Below are positions 129 through 38,233 of a DNA stretch of 64,000 bases, one piece after another. The position numbers and the translations under genes were made by a program. The notes under the pieces are model-generated. The model searched no databases. It was not told the DNA's origin and was given only the letters and a program-made list of their open reading frames with translations. The stretch covers positions 1 through 64,000 of the forward strand of contig JAMOUV010000015.1 in the NCBI GenBank assembly GCA_027067965.1. Reading direction: 5' to 3'. This stretch comes from Flavobacteriales bacterium. GTDB lineage: Bacteria > Bacteroidota > Bacteroidia > Flavobacteriales > Flavobacteriaceae. The stretch's first letter is position 1. Each line of letters begins with the position of its first letter.

Positions 129-180
129 GTTTTTATAATCAGGATTCAAGATAGGTCTATACCAAAATAGTAAAAGTAAA

Positions 181-570
181 AGTCAAGGTCAAAGTTAAAA
201 ATTGAGATCCCTCCTGCCTGAGGCGGACATGGCGTCGCTGCGTTTATCAATCCGAAGGGTGAGTCGCACCGACCTTTGTCCGCAGGTCACAGTCGCAGAC
301 TCAGTGAGACTCGTATCGAGATCCTCCATAGGAGTCGTATCGACCTTCGGGGGGATGACAGTAGGGATTAACGATTAACGATTGCAGATTTCAGATTGCA
401 GATTTAAAATAATCAAGGTCAAGGTCAAGGTTAAAGTCCGGAAATGAGATGTCTCCCGCCTGAGGCGGACACGGCGTCGCTGCGTTTGTCAAACCCGAAG
501 GGTGAGTCGCATTGACCTATGGGGATGACAGAAGGGATAAACGATTGCAGATTGCAGATTGCAAATTTTA
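181..570 (+). repeat. Two copies of an intergenic repeat family (copy A 181-408, copy B 413-570)
   Basis: This gene-free stretch holds two diverged copies of the same element. Each has a GTCAAGGT-rich lead-in, then GAGAT and the palindrome-containing motif GCCTGAGGCGGACA, GGCGTCGCTGCG, CGAAGGGTGAGTCGCA, and a tail ending in GGGATGACAG and AACGATTGCAGATT direct repeats. Copy A also has a middle part (CTTTGTCCGCAGGTCACAGTC, then CTCCATAGGAGTCGTATCGACC) that copy B lacks. Inverted relatives lie at 13741-13965 and 14575-14665. Any reading frame here is short and repeat-derived, so I regard the stretch as non-coding. Confidence 0.85.
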
Positions 571-6577: not shown

Positions 6578-6589
6578 CATCGACAAACA

Positions 6590-6665
6590 TGAAGGGGTGC
6601 CTTAACAAAACGGGCTGAGATCATACCCTTTGAACCTGGGCGGGTAATGCCGCCAAGGGATCGAA
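6590..6665 (+). ncRNA. Thiamin pyrophosphate (TPP) riboswitch, THI element
   Basis: The stretch shows the conserved blocks of the THI box in order: GGGGTGCC (6594-6601), GGGCTGAGATCATACCC (about 6612-6628), TGAACCTG (6631-6638), GGGTAATGCCGCC (about 6642-6654) and AAGGGATC. TPP binding normally switches downstream expression off. No terminator lies between the aptamer and the ATG at 6699, so control of translation is more likely. GAAGGG at the aptamer start can pair with CCCTTC at about 6678-6683, a possible alternative helix (inference). The controlled gene is the TonB receptor that follows. Confidence 0.93.
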
Positions 6666-6698
6666 GTAAATCTCCCTCCCTTCGCAAATAATTATGCG

Positions 6699-9050
6699 AT
6701 GAAAAAAATAATGGGATTAATCGGACTATTGCTCCATTCGTGGGTATGGAGCCAAAACTTTACCCTCCAAGTTCAAGTAACGGAAAATAACGCTGCCGTA
6801 TCCGGCGCGTCCGTCAAAATTATTGAAACCGGTCAAAGCCGAATAACCGACAAAAAAGGAACGGCCGTTTTTAATGTGCCGGAAGGAACTTATCACATAG
6901 TGGCCGAGAAAAACGGTAAATATGCCGAAACACGGGTGAAAGTAAATAAAAATCTTCGTATTAAAATCAAATTGCGAAAAAAAACGGAACAATTGGGCGA
7001 AGTGATAATTACCGCCACCAGAGCCGGTGAAGAAATGCCGTTTACACATCAGATTATTACAAAAAAAGATATAGCGGAAAAATATGTGACCCAAGACATT
7101 CCGTATGTGCTGAGCAACCTGCCTTCGGTTGTAACTACTTCCGATGCCGGCCACGGCGTGGGTTATACCGGTATTCGCATACGGGGCATCAGCCCGCAAC
7201 AAATCAACGTGACGCTTAACGGCATTCCGCTCAACGATCCCGAATCGCATTCGGTTTATTGGGTCGATATTCCCGATTTTGTTTCCTCTACCGAAAATAT
7301 TCAAGTGCAGCGAGGTGTAGGAACTTCCACATACGGCACCGGCGCATTTGGTGCCAATATCAATTTGCTTCCCGAAAAACCCGCCGATAGTGCCTATTTC
7401 GGGCTTTCGACCGCCGCAGGTTCGTTTAATACATATAAAATAACGGCTAAAGCCAATACGGGTCGGGTCGGTAAATATTTTGCATTCAATATGCGGGCCT
7501 CCAAATTGCATTCCGACGGCTATATAGACCGCGCTTTTGCCGATATGCAATCCTATTTCTTTTCCGGGCTTTTTCGTAAAGGAAAACACCGTATCCAATT
7601 GCTTCATTTCGGCGGTCATGAACGTACCTATCAAGCATGGTATGGCGTGGACAAGGAAACTTTCGAAAAAAATCCCCGATTCAATTATGCCGGTGCCATC
7701 TATGATGACGCTTGGAATATCATCGATTTTTACGATAATGAAGTGGATGATTATACCCAAAAACACTATCAATTACATTATCATTTCAATTCCCGCGAAT
7801 CGTGGGCATTCGGTGTGTCGGCATTTTACGTGAAAGGATACGGATTCTATGAACAATACAAACAAAATCAATCCTTTGATAAATACGGATTCCACCCCTT
7901 GGTTATCGGTACCCATGTCATCGATCATACCGATTTGATCAGACGAAAATGGCTGGATAATGATTTTTACGGCATGGTGGCCAATGCCCGCCTCACCACC
8001 GACCATACCACCTGGTTGTTCGGCTTGGGGGCCAATCGATATGCGGGGTGGCATTACGGTGAAGTCATTTGGGCCCGCTTTGCCGACGATTCGGAAATTC
8101 GTCATCAATATTACCGCAACCTGGGCGATAAGCGAAGCATAAACGGCTTTATTAAAAATACCTACTCACTTGCCGATAATTTGAAATTATATACCGATAT
8201 TCAGTTACGCTCCATCGATTATCAAATCGACTACGACCCGCAGGTTACTTACGATCCGGATGAAAAAATCAACCTCACCGACCGGTTGTTTTTCGTCAAT
8301 CCCAAGGCGGGATTAACGTATGAAATAAATCCGGACCAAACGGCTTATATTTCTATAGCCCAAACCCACCGGGAACCCAACCGGACGGACTATATTGAAA
8401 ATGTTCATAAACCCAAACCCGAAACCCTGAACGATTTGGAAGCCGGATATCGTTTACAGAAAAAAAATCTGCAATGGCACACGAATGTGTATTATATGCA
8501 CTATAAAGACCAATTGGTTTATAGCGGCCGCATAGACGAAGTGGGCAACCCTATCCGGGAAAATGTGGGTAAAAGTTACCGTGCGGGCTGGGAAAATCAA
8601 GTCAATTACCGGTATGGAAAATGGGAATGGGCGGGACATTTGACCCTAAGCCGTAACAAAAATATCGATTATCAGGCATGGGACGGCACGCAAATGAAAA
8701 ATTTCGGCCATACCGATATTTCCTATTCTCCTTCGGTGGTGGCCGGCTTTCAATTGAAATATCAAGTTGCCGAACCTCTTGCCGTACTATTTCGTACCAA
8801 ATATGTGGGTAAACAATATATGGACAACCGGAATATACCCGAATCTATATTGCCCGCTTATGCGGTATCGGGATTAGACATCCTGTTTTCCCCACAAATC
8901 AATCCGGCAAAGAAATTTGATATTCATCTGAAAATCAACAATTTGTTTAATAAAAAATATGCTTCCAACGGGTATATGTGGGGTGACACGGCTTATTATT
9001 TTCCGCAGGCGGGAAGACATTTTTATTTGGGAATGAATATTATACTGTAA
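6699..9050 (+). CDS. TonB-dependent outer-membrane receptor, predicted thiamin uptake
   Basis: A 783-residue TonB-dependent receptor. Order: signal peptide (about 1-19, ends VWSQ), a carboxypeptidase-regulatory-like beta-sandwich (about 22-95), a plug domain (about 105-225, with IRIRGISPQQINVTLNGIPLN and QVQRGVGTSTYGTGAFG) and a 22-strand-type barrel ending in an aromatic-rich last strand. The TPP riboswitch in its leader makes thiamin or a thiamin precursor the likely substrate. Thiamin-regulated outer-membrane receptors are known from Bacteroides, where they work with the inner-membrane carrier PnuT. Neither pnuT nor thiamin biosynthesis genes are in this window. A strong terminator follows. 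Confidence 0.92.
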   Translation: MKKIMGLIGLLLHSWVWSQNFTLQVQVTENNAAVSGASVKIIETGQSRITDKKGTAVFNVPEGTYHIVAEKNGKYAETRVKVNKNLRIKIKLRKKTEQLGEVIITATRAGEEMPFTHQIITKKDIAEKYVTQDIPYVLSNLPSVVTTSDAGHGVGYTGIRIRGISPQQINVTLNGIPLNDPESHSVYWVDIPDFVSSTENIQVQRGVGTSTYGTGAFGANINLLPEKPADSAYFGLSTAAGSFNTYKITAKANTGRVGKYFAFNMRASKLHSDGYIDRAFADMQSYFFSGLFRKGKHRIQLLHFGGHERTYQAWYGVDKETFEKNPRFNYAGAIYDDAWNIIDFYDNEVDDYTQKHYQLHYHFNSRESWAFGVSAFYVKGYGFYEQYKQNQSFDKYGFHPLVIGTHVIDHTDLIRRKWLDNDFYGMVANARLTTDHTTWLFGLGANRYAGWHYGEVIWARFADDSEIRHQYYRNLGDKRSINGFIKNTYSLADNLKLYTDIQLRSIDYQIDYDPQVTYDPDEKINLTDRLFFVNPKAGLTYEINPDQTAYISIAQTHREPNRTDYIENVHKPKPETLNDLEAGYRLQKKNLQWHTNVYYMHYKDQLVYSGRIDEVGNPIRENVGKSYRAGWENQVNYRYGKWEWAGHLTLSRNKNIDYQAWDGTQMKNFGHTDISYSPSVVAGFQLKYQVAEPLAVLFRTKYVGKQYMDNRNIPESILPAYAVSGLDILFSPQINPAKKFDIHLKINNLFNKKYASNGYMWGDTAYYFPQAGRHFYLGMNIIL

Positions 9051-13740: not shown

Positions 13741-13965
13741 TCAATATGTCATAATGACCCCTGTGGGGAGTCTCACCGTCATTGACCCTGTGGGAGTCTC
13801 ACCGAGTCTGCGACTGCGACTGTGACCTGCGGACAAAGGTCGATGCGACTCACCCTTCGGGTTTGAGAAGTGAGGAACGAACGACGCCGTGTCCGCCTCA
13901 GGCGGGAGGGATCTCATTTTTTGAACTTTAACCATCACCTTGACTTTAACTTTTTTGGAAAAAGA
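13741..13965 (-). repeat. Inverted copy of the 181-408 intergenic repeat
   Basis: Read on the minus strand this contains, in order, GAGATCCCTCC, GCCTGAGGCGGACACGGCGTCG, CGAAGGGTGAGTCGCAT, CGACCTTTGTCCGCAGGTC and GTGAGACTC, matching copy A near the start of the window but in opposite orientation about 13.4 kb away. A short duplicated tail (GTGAGACTCCCCACAGGG-like) follows. A 65-codon frame on this strand is repeat-derived and not a credible gene. Confidence 0.85.
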
Positions 13966-14070: not shown

Positions 14071-14422
14071 GTCGATACGAGTCTAGGACCTGTGGAGAAC
14101 CCACCGGTGCCCTTGTTTTGGTAAAAAGATGGGGAAATTGTATGAAAATAAAGCGGTGGGAGGGGGATTCCTCCATAGGGTCGATACGACTCCTATGGAG
14201 AGTCTCGATACGAGTCTAGGACCTGTGGAGAACCCACCGGTGCCCTTGTTTTTGGTAAAAAGATGGGGAAATTGTATGAAAATAAAGCGGTGGGAGGGGG
14301 ATTCCTCCGTAGGGTCGATACGACTCCTATGGAGAGTCTCGATACGAGTCTAGGACCTGTGGAGAACCCTCCGGTGCCCTTACTTTTTTGGTAAAAAGAT
14401 GGGGAAATTGTATGAAAATAAA
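14071..14422 (+). repeat. Tandem array of interrupted tRNA-Ser 3' halves plus flank (period 134-136 bp)
   Basis: The array abuts the true tRNA-Ser gene. Each unit, on the plus strand, has a 38-40 bp flank (GGTAAAAAGATGGGGAAATTG, TATGAAAATAAA), the tRNA 3' end GCGGTGGGAGGGGGATTC (14153-14170, 14287-14304, and the genuine one from 14423), a 60-bp insert (14171-14230 and 14305-14364), and then AACCC(A/T)CCGGTGCCCTT, which is the other part of the tRNA T-arm and variable arm. The insert sits exactly in the T loop, starts CTCC(A/G)TAGGGTCGATACGACT and ends CTGTGGAG. Its palindromic core CTCCATAGG/CCTATGGAG also occurs in the repeat near 330. A partial insert remains at about 14071-14097. Confidence 0.85.
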
Positions 14423-14423
14423 G

Positions 14424-14510
14424 CGGTGGGAGGGGGATTCGAACCCCCGGTGCCCTTGCGAGCACAACGGTTTTCGAGACCGCCCCGTTCGACCGCTCCG
14501 GCATCCCACC
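14424..14510 (-). tRNA. tRNA-Ser (anticodon CGA)
   Basis: An 87-nt class II tRNA on the minus strand. Acceptor arms GGTGGGA and TCCCACC pair, with discriminator G73 as usual for tRNA-Ser. The anticodon stem GCGGT/ACCGT closes the loop CTCGAAA, giving anticodon CGA (reads UCG). A long variable arm (GTGC...GCAC) is present, and the T arm is GGGGGTTCGAATCCCCC. The 3' CCA is not encoded. Upstream on the minus strand there is an exact -7 box. The 3' end abuts the tandem array of damaged partial copies. Confidence 0.95.
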
Positions 14511-14574: not shown

Positions 14575-14665
14575 GTGGATTTTTTGGACTTTAACCTTTA
14601 CCTTGACTTTCACTATTTTAAATCTAAAATCTGCAATCTGAAATCGTTAATCGTTAATCCCAATG
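14575..14665 (-). repeat. Inverted copy of the 360-440 repeat tail
   Basis: The minus strand reads GGGATTAACGATTAACGATT, TCAGATTGCAGATTT and AAGGTAAAGGTTAAAGTCC, matching 361-440 in inverted orientation. With the 13741-13965 copy it forms a split inverted partner of the repeat block at the start of the window. Nothing else is seen between the tRNA and the next gene. Confidence 0.75.
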
Positions 14666-19886: not shown

Positions 19887-21557
19887 ATGAAAAAGATTGT
19901 TCTTTATCCTATTTTAATAATATTTTTACTTACAACAGGTCAATTATTATCTCAAGTAGCCATTAATAACGACGGGGCCAATCCGCATGCATCAGCCATG
20001 TTGGATATCAAAAGTTCCAATAAAGGATTATTGATTCCGCGCATGTCCAAACTACAACGTGACGGAATTAATTCACCTGCCACGGGTTTGTTAATTTATC
20101 AAACCAATAACACGCCCGGTTTTTATTATTTTGACGGCACGCAATGGGTTTTTCTGACCGATGCCAATCATTCCGCAGTTAAAATCGACGATTTACAAGA
20201 CGGAAAATCCGATAACGACGGCTCGCATAACGGTTCGTCTATATTTTTAGGTATTAATGCCGGACAAAACGATGACCAAAGCGATAACAGAAACATCGGT
20301 ATCGGTTTTGAATCCATGAAAAATAACAGTTCGGGATTTAACAATACGGCTATTGGATATAAATCATTATATTCCAATACAACCGGCCGTCATAATACCG
20401 CTGCCGGATATGCAGCTCTTTATGCTAATACCACCGGTTTTGATAATACCGCATTCGGTCAGGAAGCGCTCCGTAGCAATACTTCCGGGATTTCCAATAC
20501 CGCCATCGGTTATCGCTCCATGTATTCCAATACCACCGGAAAATTCAATACGGTTATTGGAAACGGCGCTATGTTTAGCAATACTACCGGTGAAAATAAT
20601 TCGGTAAACGGTTATCAAGCCATGTATTCCAACAAAACCGGATATCATAATACGGCTTCGGGTTTTAGGGCTTTGTTTAGAAATAATTCCGGATATAAAA
20701 ACACTGCATCAGGTAATCAGGCCCTTTATAAGAACACAACCGGATTTCACAATACGGCCACAGGTAACGAATCTCTTTTTGAAAATAAAACGGGGCATTC
20801 CAATACGGCAACCGGTCATAAAGCATTATATCATACCACCGGTGATCATAATTCGGCGCATGGTAACGGTGCGCTTTATTATAACAATACCGGAAGTTAT
20901 AATACCGCCTCGGGGTATCAAGCATTATATTCCAACACAACCGGAAATTACAATACGGCTATAGGTTATAAAGCATTTCATAGCGGCAATAATCACACCA
21001 ATTCTACAGCCATCGGTTACAATTCAGTGATTAATGCTTCCAATCAAGTCCGCATAGGAAATGCTTCCGTTACAAGTATAGGCGGATATGCGAATTGGTC
21101 CAATGTGTCGGACGGACGCTTCAAAACCGACGTCAATGAAAACGTACCCGGTATGGCCTTGGTAGAAAAACTACGGCCCGTGACTTACCGGTTGAATATC
21201 ACTACTTTAAATAAAAAATTACATCTTGATACGAATAAAAATGACGAAAAATCCATCCGGGCTAAAGAAAGAGAACTTCAAATCGGTTTTATAGCCCAAG
21301 AAGTGGAACAAGCCGCCCGGGAGTTGGGATTCGATTTCCATGCCGTGGACAAACCGAAAAACGAAAACGACATTTACGGACTGCGCTACGCGGAATTTGT
21401 ACCGGTTTTGGTCAAAGCATTGCAAGAACAACAAAATAGCATTTATCACTTACAAAACCAAGTGGAAAATTTAAAATCCGAGAATGCGGATATGAAAGCC
21501 AAATTTATGGAGCTACAACAACAAATCAACGAATTGAAGTCGGTTATAAACAATTAA
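19887..21557 (+). CDS. Exported fibre protein: head-type repeats and C-terminal peptidase S74 chaperone domain
   Basis: A 556-residue exported protein. I start at the ATG at 19887, which opens a signal peptide ending LLSQ; frames extending upstream have no signal. Order: an N-terminal cap (AMLDIKSSNKGLLIPRM, TPGFYYFDGTQW), then about 13 tandem 17-residue units of pattern NTAxGYxALYxNTTGxx (about 150-375), then a peptidase S74 domain (about 395-510, with VSDGRFKTDV and IGFIAQEVE), then a coiled coil. In phage tailspikes S74 domains help trimer folding and cut themselves off before the Ser of the Ser-Asp motif; here that would be near Ser408. Repeats of this kind form trimeric beta-rolls. No phage genes are near. 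Likely a secreted or surface trimeric fibre (inference). Confidence 0.85.
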   Translation: MKKIVLYPILIIFLLTTGQLLSQVAINNDGANPHASAMLDIKSSNKGLLIPRMSKLQRDGINSPATGLLIYQTNNTPGFYYFDGTQWVFLTDANHSAVKIDDLQDGKSDNDGSHNGSSIFLGINAGQNDDQSDNRNIGIGFESMKNNSSGFNNTAIGYKSLYSNTTGRHNTAAGYAALYANTTGFDNTAFGQEALRSNTSGISNTAIGYRSMYSNTTGKFNTVIGNGAMFSNTTGENNSVNGYQAMYSNKTGYHNTASGFRALFRNNSGYKNTASGNQALYKNTTGFHNTATGNESLFENKTGHSNTATGHKALYHTTGDHNSAHGNGALYYNNTGSYNTASGYQALYSNTTGNYNTAIGYKAFHSGNNHTNSTAIGYNSVINASNQVRIGNASVTSIGGYANWSNVSDGRFKTDVNENVPGMALVEKLRPVTYRLNITTLNKKLHLDTNKNDEKSIRAKERELQIGFIAQEVEQAARELGFDFHAVDKPKNENDIYGLRYAEFVPVLVKALQEQQNSIYHLQNQVENLKSENADMKAKFMELQQQINELKSVINN

Positions 21558-36073: not shown

Positions 36074-38233
36074 TTATTCTCCCAAACGATTTTCCAATCT
36101 TCTTAATCGTTCTTCCAATTCTTCAATTTTAGCATTTTGTCGCTGAATTTTTTCTTCTTGCTCCTGCAATGCCTTTACCAGCACGGGCACAAATTCGGCA
36201 TAGCGCAGGCCGTAAATATCATTGGAATTTTTAGGCCTATCCACTGCGTGGAAATCGAAATGCAAACTCTTGGCCGCTTCTTCCACTTCTTGCGCAATAA
36301 AACCGATTTGCCATTCGGCGCCCTTGGCGGCTTCGGACTGTTTGCTGCGCAAACTGTCGGGAATTTGGTTCCACTTGGCCAAGGCATTCATATCCAACCG
36401 GTAGGTAACGGGGCGCAATTTTTTTATCAAGGCCATGCCCGGCACGTTTTCGTTCACATCGGTCTTGAAACGTCCGTCCGACACATTTGTCCAATTGGCA
36501 TATCCACCGATGCTGGTAACATCGATATTTCCTATACGTGCCTGGTAGGAAGCATGGACACGTGTGAGATAGCCGAGGGCAATGGAGTTATGAAAATCGG
36601 TTTCCAGGGGAAAGGCGCTGAATCCTACGGCAACATTATGATATCCGGAAATATTATCGCCCATGGCCAATCCTCCCAAGGCCACATTGCCGTAACCGGT
36701 GGTATTTTCGTGCAATGCCCTGAAGCCTAAAACCGAATTGGTTGATCCGGACGTATTATTTACGGCAGCTTCGTAGCCTAAGACCGAATTCATGTCGCCA
36801 TCGCCGTAGCTTTTTAAAGCATGCGCACCTACCACCGTATTATTGTCTCCTTTATTATCCTCCATGGTGCCCTTTCCGATGGCCACATTATTCGATCCGT
36901 TATTGGACATGAGTGTAAATGCTCCAACGGCCACGTTATAATCGGCCGAATCCGCCAAAAACATGGCGCCGTAACCTATAACGGTATTTGACGAACCTTT
37001 TTGGATTTTTTTCATTGCTGACGTCCCTATAGCCGTGTTTCCTTCGCCGGTAGTTATCTCTAAGAGGGCACGATTACCTACGGCCACATTCTGCCTATAA
37101 TATTGCATGTTCTTTAAGGCGCTGTGTCCTATGGCCACATTATCATGTCCTCCTTGCAAAGACAACAAAGCGCCCTGACCGATGGCCAAGTTATATTTGC
37201 CACGGTAGGAGTGATACAAAGCGGAATCACCAATGGCTATCGAAACGCTTTTGGTTGTATTGTCGTGCAATGCACCGTAGCCGATAGCCACATTGGAATT
37301 ACCGGTGGAATTGTTCATCAGCGCATATTTTCCAATGGCAATGTTATAATTACCCTCTGTATTAGAATATAAAGACATATGCCCTGTGGCAATGTTATTG
37401 GAACCCGTGGTATTGTTTTTCATGGCGTAGGCACCCGATGCAATATTACTCGAACCTGTGGTGTTGGCATATAATGCCTGAATGCCCAATGCCGTATTCA
37501 ATTCACCGCTAGTATTGTTATGAAGAGTAGAAGAGCCCAATGCCGTATTGTAATTAGCGGTATTATGAAATAACGCCGCATTTCCTACCGCTGTATTTTG
37601 ATAACCCGTATGATTAAGTTGGAGTGCTTGCGCACCTATGGCTATATTATTATCTCCATCCGTATTGTAACGTAAGGCATTATAGCCCATCGCCACATTG
37701 TACGAACCGGTAGTATTTTCGTTCAACGCATAATAACCAATGCCGGCATTTTTATTGTTGGAAAAATCATTGTTTACGCCGGCATATTTGCCCACAAAGA
37801 CGGAGCTGGATCCGGAAACGGCATCATCCAAATCATTCAATTCTTGCGCGCCGCCTCCGTTTTCGGCATACTTGGCATAAGGAACGGTTTTGAAATCCTG
37901 CATACCCATATCATGATAGGTATTCCCGCCATCGGTACTGAGAAAAACCTTATAACTATGAGATTGCGACCAATCCAAATCCGTAAATTGTCCCTGGGTG
38001 GCCGTGCCTTCACCCAGCGTAACGTGAAATATACCGTTGGCATCGGTGGTGGTCTCGTGGTGTTCGCTGTAAATAAGGCTTCCATTTTCGTAGAATTCCA
38101 CGTTGAGTTTCACCGGCTGATTGGCCAGAATTTGACCGTTTTCGCTCACCAGACCTTTGTAATTAAATCCGGTAGTTTGTGCCTTTACCCAAAAAGACAC
38201 AAAAAGAATGAGTAAGATTGTAAGTTTTTTCAT
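36074..38233 (-). CDS. Large exported fibre protein: head-type repeats and C-terminal peptidase S74 domain
   Basis: A 719-residue exported protein (signal peptide ends FWVKAQ). Residues about 22-125 form an N-terminal beta domain (FNYKGLVSENGQILANQPV, HVTLGEGTATQG) that is typical of Bacteroidota tail-fibre-domain proteins. About 24 tandem 17-residue units of pattern NxAIGxxALxxNTTGxx span about 165-565. The S74 chaperone domain follows (VSDGRFKTDV with the predicted cut near Ser585, IGFIAQEVE), then a coiled coil (about 680-719). The S74 part is nearly the same as in the gene at 19887 (VNENVPGMAL, RPVTYRL, NDIYGLRYAEFVPVLVKALQEQ). It is the last gene of a seven-gene operon and probably forms a trimeric surface fibre (inference). 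Confidence 0.85.
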   Translation of the reverse strand: MKKLTILLILFVSFWVKAQTTGFNYKGLVSENGQILANQPVKLNVEFYENGSLIYSEHHETTTDANGIFHVTLGEGTATQGQFTDLDWSQSHSYKVFLSTDGGNTYHDMGMQDFKTVPYAKYAENGGGAQELNDLDDAVSGSSSVFVGKYAGVNNDFSNNKNAGIGYYALNENTTGSYNVAMGYNALRYNTDGDNNIAIGAQALQLNHTGYQNTAVGNAALFHNTANYNTALGSSTLHNNTSGELNTALGIQALYANTTGSSNIASGAYAMKNNTTGSNNIATGHMSLYSNTEGNYNIAIGKYALMNNSTGNSNVAIGYGALHDNTTKSVSIAIGDSALYHSYRGKYNLAIGQGALLSLQGGHDNVAIGHSALKNMQYYRQNVAVGNRALLEITTGEGNTAIGTSAMKKIQKGSSNTVIGYGAMFLADSADYNVAVGAFTLMSNNGSNNVAIGKGTMEDNKGDNNTVVGAHALKSYGDGDMNSVLGYEAAVNNTSGSTNSVLGFRALHENTTGYGNVALGGLAMGDNISGYHNVAVGFSAFPLETDFHNSIALGYLTRVHASYQARIGNIDVTSIGGYANWTNVSDGRFKTDVNENVPGMALIKKLRPVTYRLDMNALAKWNQIPDSLRSKQSEAAKGAEWQIGFIAQEVEEAAKSLHFDFHAVDRPKNSNDIYGLRYAEFVPVLVKALQEQEEKIQRQNAKIEELEERLRRLENRLGE

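What the first reader, a model, noticed from the sequence alone, without database searches (positions are those of the whole stretch)
14071..14510. tRNA-Ser 3' halves repeated in tandem, each with an identical-size 60-bp insert in the T loop
Next to the intact tRNA-Ser(CGA), two further copies of its 3' half lie in a 134-136 bp tandem array. In both copies the T loop (ATTC / AACCC) is split by a 60-bp palindrome-rich segment, and both segments are exactly 60 bp. The genuine tRNA lacks it. This looks like insertion of a small repeat element into a tRNA fragment, followed by tandem duplication with the flank. A part of the same element (CTCCATAGGAGTCGTATCGACC) is in the repeat block near 330, so the element seems mobile or was spread through the genome. 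It might be a non-autonomous element that targets tRNA T loops.
Basis: partly seen in the sequence, partly recalled or inferred. Interest (0 to 1): 0.72.

Follow-up and report, generated by a model that had tools for sequence, protein, structure and literature searches.

The report
Relic of a tRNA-invading nuclease element
The odd repeats beside this tRNA gene look like the worn remains of a very small selfish DNA element, found in many Bacteroidota, that breaks into tRNA genes, gives the host a replacement piece so the tRNA still works, and leaves a hairpin-marked tRNA fragment behind.

Summary
In detail: two more 3'-half fragments of tRNA-Ser(CGA), plus a partial third, form a 133-136 bp tandem array; both full inserts are 60 bp in the T loop, one base apart. 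It is not isolated. In this genome 7 of 39 tRNA genes have hairpin-bearing fragments of themselves alongside, three with small GIY-YIG nuclease genes. Of 130 related GIY-YIG loci, 110 have a same-strand tRNA within 500 bp and 89 of those carry a partial copy of that tRNA beyond the ORF, mostly with a hairpin in or replacing an arm (controls). Comparison with syntenic empty sites in Flavobacterium suggests insertion inside the tRNA gene: the flank after the displaced copy fits empty sites better in 9 of 14 loci, the flank after the intact tRNA in 5. The window array is best read as a nuclease-less, amplified relic. The insert is not a discrete mobile element: its core is a dispersed repeat with other ends. 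My searches listed no paper on such bacterial elements; fungal mitochondrial mobile ORFs and phage SegB are closest.

The parts
14423..14510 (-). intact tRNA-Ser(CGA)
   Evidence: ARAGORN; Rfam RF00005 55 bits (14424-14510)
14383..14422 (-). spacer copy next to the intact tRNA 3' end
   Evidence: read directly; repeat family D3
14365..14382 (-). tRNA fragment, variable-arm side and T-stem 5' strand (copy nearest the gene)
   Evidence: repeat family D4
14305..14364 (-). 60-bp hairpin-rich insert in the T loop, copy 2
14287..14304 (-). tRNA fragment, T-arm 3' strand and acceptor 3' strand
   Evidence: 100% match to tRNA positions 71-88
14249..14286 (-). spacer copy
14231..14248 (-). tRNA fragment, variable-arm side and T-stem 5' strand
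14171..14230 (-). 60-bp hairpin-rich insert in the T loop, copy 1
14153..14170 (-). tRNA fragment, T-arm 3' strand and acceptor 3' strand
   Evidence: 100% match to tRNA positions 71-88
14116..14152 (-). spacer copy
14098..14115 (-). outermost tRNA fragment
14071..14097 (-). truncated outermost insert, where the array runs into other intergenic repeats
307..345 (+). dispersed intergenic repeat that shares 39 bases with the insert; not at a tRNA
   Evidence: 95% identity

Best explanation
The array is a nuclease-less, tandemly amplified relic of a tRNA-invading GIY-YIG element. A complete element is a cassette of about 0.4 kb. It sits inside a tRNA gene and supplies a replacement tRNA part (usually the 3' half with a terminator) that keeps the tRNA intact. 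Then comes a GIY-YIG ORF of about 80-105 codons, then the host's displaced tRNA part, in which the anticodon or T arm is replaced or split by a hairpin. Shown here: the linkage, the partial copies, the hairpins, occupied and empty alleles at one syntenic place, and tandem arrays with and without the ORF. Supported but not settled: that the copy beyond the ORF is the host's original part. Inferred: (a) the nuclease cuts the tRNA gene and the cassette spreads by break repair (homing); (b) cutting inside an occupied locus drives tandem amplification, as shown for SegB in phage T6; (c) the hairpin destroys the nuclease target in the displaced part; (d) the Ser(CGA) array lost its ORF, and its hairpin was enlarged by a dispersed genomic repeat.
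For: In the same genome tRNA-Ser(TGA) has 5 GIY-YIG ORFs in 376-bp units, and its T-loop insert starts with almost the same word as in the window (TTCTCCACAGG[A/T]CCT). GIY-less fragments with a hairpin in place of the T arm also adjoin tRNA-Arg(TCT) (41-bp unit x13), Ala(GGC) and Pro(AGG). Over 130 loci: a same-strand tRNA within 500 bp in 110; a partial copy in 89 of 110; a hairpin stem of 6 or more in 73 of 89 against 8.7 expected from shuffles. Controls: of 94 loci with the tRNA upstream, 76 have the copy, against 2 of 81 in a region 600 bp further on and 1.65 of 94 when regions are swapped between tRNA identities; large-ORF GIY proteins have a tRNA nearby in 0 of 11 loci. Empty sites: in 7 of 14 occupied Flavobacterium loci the flank beyond the copy matches an empty site strongly (local score 45 or more of 60; F. 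resistens 60 of 60), in 0 of 14 the flank after the intact tRNA does. Two tRNA-Val genes of one genome, about 1.6 Mb apart, carry the cassette at 98% over 440 bp, while their upstream flanks are 66% alike (54% for shuffled sequence). Precedents: SegB (PMC13096335, passages) and mitochondrial mobile ORFs (PMC3630166, passages).
Against: The window array has no GIY-YIG ORF; no match lies on contig C15. Its hairpin is not of the common TCCCGA type, and its core is a dispersed intergenic repeat. Its outer end runs into other repeats, so no displaced native flank can be shown there. In 5 of 14 Flavobacterium loci the flank after the intact tRNA, not the one beyond the copy, fits an empty site better (L097, L098, L099 with L254; L102, L111); L254's terminator looks element-like, so it may be a secondary loss, but these are contrary cases. 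The link between nuclease clade and disrupted arm is modest: with automatic labels only, 1 to 12 of 300 shuffles reach it. The tRNA halves kept in proximal and displaced copies are often identical, so how an occupied gene escapes cutting is unexplained. 21 of 110 loci show no partial copy, and 20 of 130 show no tRNA. In one search, 4 of 13 small-ORF GIY loci have no tRNA in the stretch.
Confidence: 0.65

Rival explanations
1. A mobile palindromic repeat (a MITE, REP or double-hairpin type) inserts into tRNA loops, and the hit fragment is then duplicated in tandem.
For: Part of the insert is dispersed: 11 other partial matches in the genome at E<=1, and seven matches in genome G001 (contexts).
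Against: Nine of the 11 dispersed copies start inside the insert rather than at its end, and ten of 11 are not at tRNAs. In F. ustbae and F. tagetis the hairpin of the tRNA-Asp element occurs once in the whole genome, so it is not a dispersed repeat there.
Confidence: 0.13
2. Plain tandem duplication of the tRNA 3' end by slippage or unequal recombination, with hairpins arising by template switching at palindromic arms, and no selfish element involved at this array.
For: tRNA arms are natural palindromes. Loops of 23 anticodon-arm hairpins resemble the original loops (mean common stretch 3.30 against 2.56, p 0.0002 without regard to relatedness), which suits a stem change in place. In the window no ORF is present.
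Against: The linkage to GIY-YIG ORFs in 110 of 130 loci and the strong flank matches to empty sites in 7 of 14 loci are not expected.
Confidence: 0.16
3. The fragments act as RNA, for example as decoys or as an RNA antitoxin for the GIY-YIG protein, in the manner of the tandem RNA arrays of type III toxin-antitoxin systems (recalled).
For: Tandem arrays of short hairpin units (41 bp x13 at Arg, 97 bp at Asp), and an unchanged hairpin stem with a variable loop in 14 of 16 scored Flavobacterium-type tRNA-Asp copies.
Against: The copies printed mostly lack the 5' acceptor strand and could not form a full tRNA. The closest solved relatives are UPF0213 proteins and SLX1 structure-specific endonucleases.
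Confidence: 0.06

Closest known systems
Mobile endonuclease ORFs (mORFs) of fungal mitochondria that form gene hybrids (Allomyces atp6; Glomus atp6, atp9, cox2, nad3; PMC3630166, passages read)
   Same: An endonuclease ORF inserts inside an essential gene together with a replacement gene end, and the native end stays downstream as a displaced fragment that matches the close relative.
   Different: Here the hosts are bacterial chromosomes, the genes are tRNA genes, the nuclease is a minimal GIY-YIG protein, and the displaced part carries a hairpin. The atp6 example in the passages has a LAGLIDADG ORF.
Phage T4/T6 SegB, a free-standing GIY-YIG homing endonuclease of the tRNA region (PMC13096335 passages; PMC2988022 passages)
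   Same: A GIY-YIG gene beside tRNA genes, and tandem amplification of units with a tRNA and the nuclease gene.
   Different: SegB lies between phage tRNA genes. No displaced tRNA half with a hairpin appears in the passages read. No relative was found in the viral or phage collections with the queries used.
UPF0213 and SLX1-type GIY-YIG proteins (PDB 1ywl, 1zg2, 6seh)
   Same: Sequence family of the nuclease.
   Different: Not known to me as tRNA-linked selfish genes (recalled).
Integrative elements that use tRNA 3' ends as attachment sites (recalled)
   Same: The tRNA 3' end is restored by a copy that the element brings, and the old end is displaced.
   Different: The cassettes printed hold a GIY-YIG ORF in about 0.4 kb and no integrase.
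Double-hairpin elements of Allomyces mitochondria (recalled)
   Same: Two adjacent short hairpins, as in the T-loop type.
   Different: Here the hairpins sit in tRNA copies beside a GIY-YIG ORF.

Membership tests
Free-standing GIY-YIG homing endonuclease genes (SegB type) | GIY-YIG domain with conserved catalytic residues | tested here: met
   For the family, not the window: PF01541 at 51-65 bits in 5 of 5 proteins scanned; Y7, Y18, G20, R28 and E64 invariant in 8 of 8 (catalytic roles recalled).
Free-standing GIY-YIG homing endonuclease genes (SegB type) | Nuclease gene present at the locus | tested here: not met
   For the window array: no GIY-YIG match on contig C15, so the window is at most a relic.
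Free-standing GIY-YIG homing endonuclease genes (SegB type) | Enzyme cuts the unoccupied allele and is inherited by repair | not testable with these tools
   Needs biochemistry and a cross.
mORF gene-hybrid elements | Element brings a replacement gene end, and the native end with its native flank is displaced downstream | tested here: inconclusive
   Flank beyond the copy fits an empty site better in 9 of 14 occupied Flavobacterium loci, strongly in 7; the reverse in 5, none at score 45 or more. One of the 14 (L253) may repeat a named species. Leaning met.
mORF gene-hybrid elements | The same architecture at the window array | tested here: inconclusive
   tRNA 3' fragments are present, but there is no ORF and no native flank at the outer end.
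Dispersed palindromic repeat or MITE | Many copies bounded by the same ends | tested here: not met
   9 of 11 dispersed matches start at query base 9, not at the insert end.
Integrase-type integrative element at a tRNA gene | Integrase gene and attachment-site duplication | tested here: not met
   In the cassettes printed the GIY-YIG ORF and tRNA pieces fill the about 0.4 kb, by eye.
Type III toxin-antitoxin | RNA array neutralises the protein | not tested
   No RNA or toxicity data.

The most novel reading that the evidence does not exclude
A widespread, undescribed class of minimal selfish element in Bacteroidota (and, by four loci, in Neomarinimicrobiota and Patescibacteria). It homes into the arms of essential tRNA genes, restores each gene with a carried tRNA half, and brands the displaced half with a hairpin in the arm that its nuclease recognises. 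It also generates ORF-less satellite arrays such as the one in this window.
Probability: 0.55. Interest if true: 0.85.

Novelty: new variant of a known kind. Interest (0 to 1): 0.73.

Why it matters
It suggests how a gene of about 80 codons can live inside essential tRNA genes of bacteria without killing the host, something known to me only from fungal mitochondria and, loosely, from phage tRNA regions. It explains a family of strange tRNA pseudogenes and tandem arrays that annotation tools miss or call odd tRNAs. It makes homing into tRNA genes testable in culturable Flavobacterium species. It also links SLX1-like nucleases to hairpins in tRNA arms.

Tried and rejected
Discrete mobile repeat: rejected because 9 of 11 dispersed copies do not share the end of the insert and because the tRNA-element hairpin is unique in two Flavobacterium genomes. 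Two other genomes (G041, G044) have 2 and 1 matches to that hairpin pattern although the elements fetched there use another hairpin. TCCCGAT..ATCGGGA hairpins are themselves numerous in F. ustbae and F. tagetis (73 and 45 per strand), mostly with loop AGCT among the listed ones.

Assembly artefact: unlikely, since the architecture recurs in many genomes, named isolates among them.

Phage or plasmid carriage: no relatives confirmed in viral contigs (113 pattern matches), none in phages with one query, 3 weak matches in plasmids with one query.

Nuclease clade and arm: the first tree (arms labelled by hand) gave 2 changes over 50 rows. With more loci, 11 labels overridden and 6 added by hand, it gave 9 over 79 rows, below all 300 shuffles. 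On checking, automatic labels alone gave 10 over 66 rows (1 of 300 shuffles as low; within tRNA identity 2 of 300) and, with single-arm rows only, 9 over 50 (2 of 300; within tRNA identity 12 of 300). I therefore call the link modest. The tree has few well supported branches.

Empty sites: my first comparison took five occupied loci. L252 there is probably the same genome as F. resistens L114 (shared 150-mers; same flanks), so it counts once. I then took all Flavobacterium tRNA-Asp loci that the script could read (14, with 2 more lacking the anchor); this brought the contrary count from one to five.

Literature: the rows listed showed no paper on such bacterial elements; several listings were short parts of longer results (20 of 266, 15 of 62, 15 of 51, 10 of 25), titles and abstract starts only, and only open-licence PMC papers are held. 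PMC1564403 passages discuss neighbours of SLX1-like nucleases, not tRNA genes.

Not tried: structure prediction, RNA models, and a named identity of the window's species.

Full report
Observation. The tRNA-Ser(CGA) gene is at 14423-14510 on the minus strand. Beside its 3' end lie two full units of 134-136 bp and one partial unit. A unit is a spacer of 37-40 bp, an 18-bp tRNA piece (acceptor 3' strand and T-arm 3' side), a 60-bp insert, and an 18-bp piece (T-arm 5' side and variable arm). Both full inserts are 60 bp and differ at one base; the outermost insert is truncated. The first insert plus ten following bases folds well as single-stranded DNA (z = -4.0).

The insert elsewhere. A 78-base query (insert plus 18 bases) finds 14 places at E<=1 in the genome, 3 of them in the array. 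Of the other 11, nine begin at query base 9, so the dispersed repeat does not have the ends of the insert. All 11 are printed: by eye ten are intergenic mosaics of short palindromic words, and the one at C10:346513 belongs to another tRNA-Ser array. Genome G001 of the same genus has seven matches to the insert, intergenic by eye.

The same thing at other tRNA genes. I fetched the surroundings of the tRNA genes of this genome; ARAGORN finds 39 in the stretches read, and Rfam's tRNA model also finds 39 over its cut-off in the whole genome. Seven have fragments of themselves alongside: Ser(CGA); Ser(TGA), with a 376-bp unit x4.8 on one side and a 120-bp unit x4.2 on the other; Asp(GTC), with a 97-bp unit at an end of contig C10 and at an end of C11; Arg(TCT), a 41-bp unit x13; Met(CAT); Pro(AGG); and Ala(GGC). 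In all seven, hairpins sit inside or in place of tRNA arms. In Arg, Ala and Pro the T arm is replaced by a hairpin such as TCCCGACGAATGTCGGGA.

The nuclease. The 376-bp units each hold an ORF with a GIY-YIG domain, about 80 codons where it follows the intact tRNA. Similar ORFs follow tRNA-Asp and tRNA-Met. Of 10 GIY-YIG matches in this genome, 8 adjoin these three tRNA genes (5 Ser, 2 Met, 1 Asp); the other two are a 596-codon frame and one stand-alone small ORF. Profiles place the family with UPF0213 and, more weakly, SLX1 structure-specific nucleases.

Generality. One scan of 84,980 genomes gave 80 loci, the best of 181. Two searches of 296 genomes of the phylum each found relatives in 101 and 113; they returned 57 loci, of which I read 50 after dropping the window's own genome and six that repeat another locus. 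No GIY region is shared between the two sets; one pair within the first set is identical. Of these 130 loci, 110 have a same-strand tRNA gene within 500 bp. Of the 20 without, 14 end within 500 bp of the ORF on one side, and one has a tRNA at 759 bp. Large-ORF GIY proteins have a tRNA in 0 of 11 stretches, and of the 13 small-ORF loci scanned in the same one search have none. tRNA identities include Asp, Met, Val, Leu, Lys, Arg, His, Ala, Pro, Asn, Ser and Gln. In 89 of 110 a partial copy of that same tRNA lies on the far side of the ORF (chain score of 17 or more). Control: of 94 loci with the tRNA upstream 76 have the copy, against 2 of 81 in a region 600 bp further on and 1.65 of 94 with regions swapped between tRNA identities. 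When the intact tRNA precedes the ORF the copy is mostly the 3' part; when it follows the ORF, mostly the 5' part. Internal stops occur in 8 of 80 and 2 of 50 ORF matches.

The hairpins. In inserted or leading parts of the copies a hairpin with a stem of 6 or more occurs in 73 of 89, against 8.7 expected from dinucleotide shuffles. It often abuts kept tRNA segments: for example tRNA-Leu positions 14-27, hairpin, 45-85 (L173), or Ala 20-27, hairpin, 45-75 (L139). Of 23 anticodon-arm cases picked by rule 18 start TCCCG, and their loops resemble the gene's own anticodon loop more than expected (3.30 against 2.56, p 0.0002); relatedness was not taken into account, so that p value is optimistic. 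In 14 of 16 scored Flavobacterium-type tRNA-Asp copies the stem TCTCGTC/GACGAGA is unchanged while the loop varies. In two of those genomes that hairpin occurs once in the whole genome.

Nuclease clade and arm. On a tree of 128 proteins the disrupted arm changes less often than chance, but the strength depends on labelling: 9 changes over 79 rows with 17 labels set by hand (minimum 11 in 300 shuffles), 10 over 66 rows with automatic labels (1 of 300 shuffles as low), and 9 over 50 single-arm rows (2 of 300; 12 of 300 when shuffled within tRNA identity). The first, smaller set gave 2 changes over 50 rows. I read this as a modest link.

Empty sites. In Flavobacterium the tRNA-Asp locus is occupied in some species and empty in others at the same place, before the same downstream gene. 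For 14 occupied loci I compared the 60 bases after the intact tRNA and the 95 bases after the copy's T arm with the flanks of eight empty alleles. The flank beyond the copy fits better in 9, with local scores of 45 to 60 (of 60) in 7: L104, L109, L110, L112, L114, L115 and L253. In F. resistens (L114) it is 60 of 60 with L259. The flank after the intact tRNA fits better in 5: L097, L098 and L099 (37-40, all with L254), L102 and L111 (29 and 31); none reaches 45. L254's terminator resembles those of elements, so it may be a former occupied site, but these cases stand against the reading. The species are related, so the 14 are not independent insertions, and L253 may repeat a named species. The plainest reading of the strong matches is that the cassette went into the tRNA gene and brought its own 3' half and terminator, so the copy beyond the ORF is the host's original 3' half. 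In genome G026 two tRNA-Val genes with different upstream flanks (66% against 54% for shuffled sequence) carry the cassette at 98% over 440 bases, which speaks for spread within a genome.

Amplification. GIY copies stand in regular tandem in several genomes: five at 315-bp steps in G337, five at 450-bp steps in G279, four at 322-bp steps in G229, three at 323-bp steps in G176, and five in the window's genome. In phage T6 the GIY-YIG enzyme SegB was needed for tandem amplification of a unit with tRNA-Tyr and segB (PMC13096335, passages).

Mechanism and window. I take the family as selfish homing cassettes of tRNA genes, which work like the mobile endonuclease ORFs of fungal mitochondria (PMC3630166, passages). 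The window array fits as a relic: same genome, same position in the T loop and the same starting word as the GIY-bearing Ser(TGA) units, and other GIY-less arrays in the genome. It lacks the ORF, and its hairpin holds a dispersed repeat. Within the genus the Ser(CGA) gene has no such array in 5 of 5 relatives whose 3' flank could be read, within the bases printed; for a sixth, G002, the contig ends at the gene. G003 and G004 have no small GIY-YIG ORF at all (drafts, 88-89% complete). These relatives are not in the same gene order, so they are weaker than the Flavobacterium comparison. How an occupied gene escapes its own nuclease is open. One possibility is recognition of an arm together with the native 3' flank, which neither copy in an occupied locus has.

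Limits. Counts rest on detection thresholds stated in the calls. The loci were found by GIY similarity, so more distant tRNA-free members may be missed. Nothing here shows cutting or mobility in the laboratory.

Noticed in passing
window 6583-6677: TPP riboswitch (55.3 bits) just upstream of a TonB-dependent receptor-like ORF at 6699-9050 (naming by eye).
   Followed up: no
window 164-568, 13760-13960 and 14579-14661: Intergenic mosaics of short palindromic words and AATCTGCAATCTG/CGTTAATCG runs recur in inverted orientation about 14 kb apart and at other places in the genome.
   Followed up: partly
window 20638-21443 and 36146-36648: Inverted repeats of 165-175 bp, 76-78% alike, about 15 kb apart; the first lies in a 569-aa ORF rich in repeated NTA motifs.
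   Followed up: no
L152, L153, L161 (Patescibacteria contigs): A GIY-YIG ORF lies upstream of an intact tRNA, with a partial 5' copy before it; the same design in another phylum.
   Followed up: partly
L119 (Neomarinimicrobiota contig): tRNA-Asp, GIY-YIG ORF, and a tRNA copy with part of the T arm replaced by TCCCGACGTGTCGGGA.
   Followed up: partly
G040 and G045 (Flavobacterium ustbae and F. tagetis genomes): The palindrome TCCCGATAGCTATCGGGA is dispersed in tens of copies (73 and 45 matches of the wider pattern per strand); a separate repeat family.
   Followed up: no
L123 3231-3309, L061 1733-1810, L070 1405-1484: ARAGORN calls these hairpin-bearing copies tRNA-Stop or tRNA-SeC, so such relics can enter annotations as false rare tRNAs.
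   Followed up: yes
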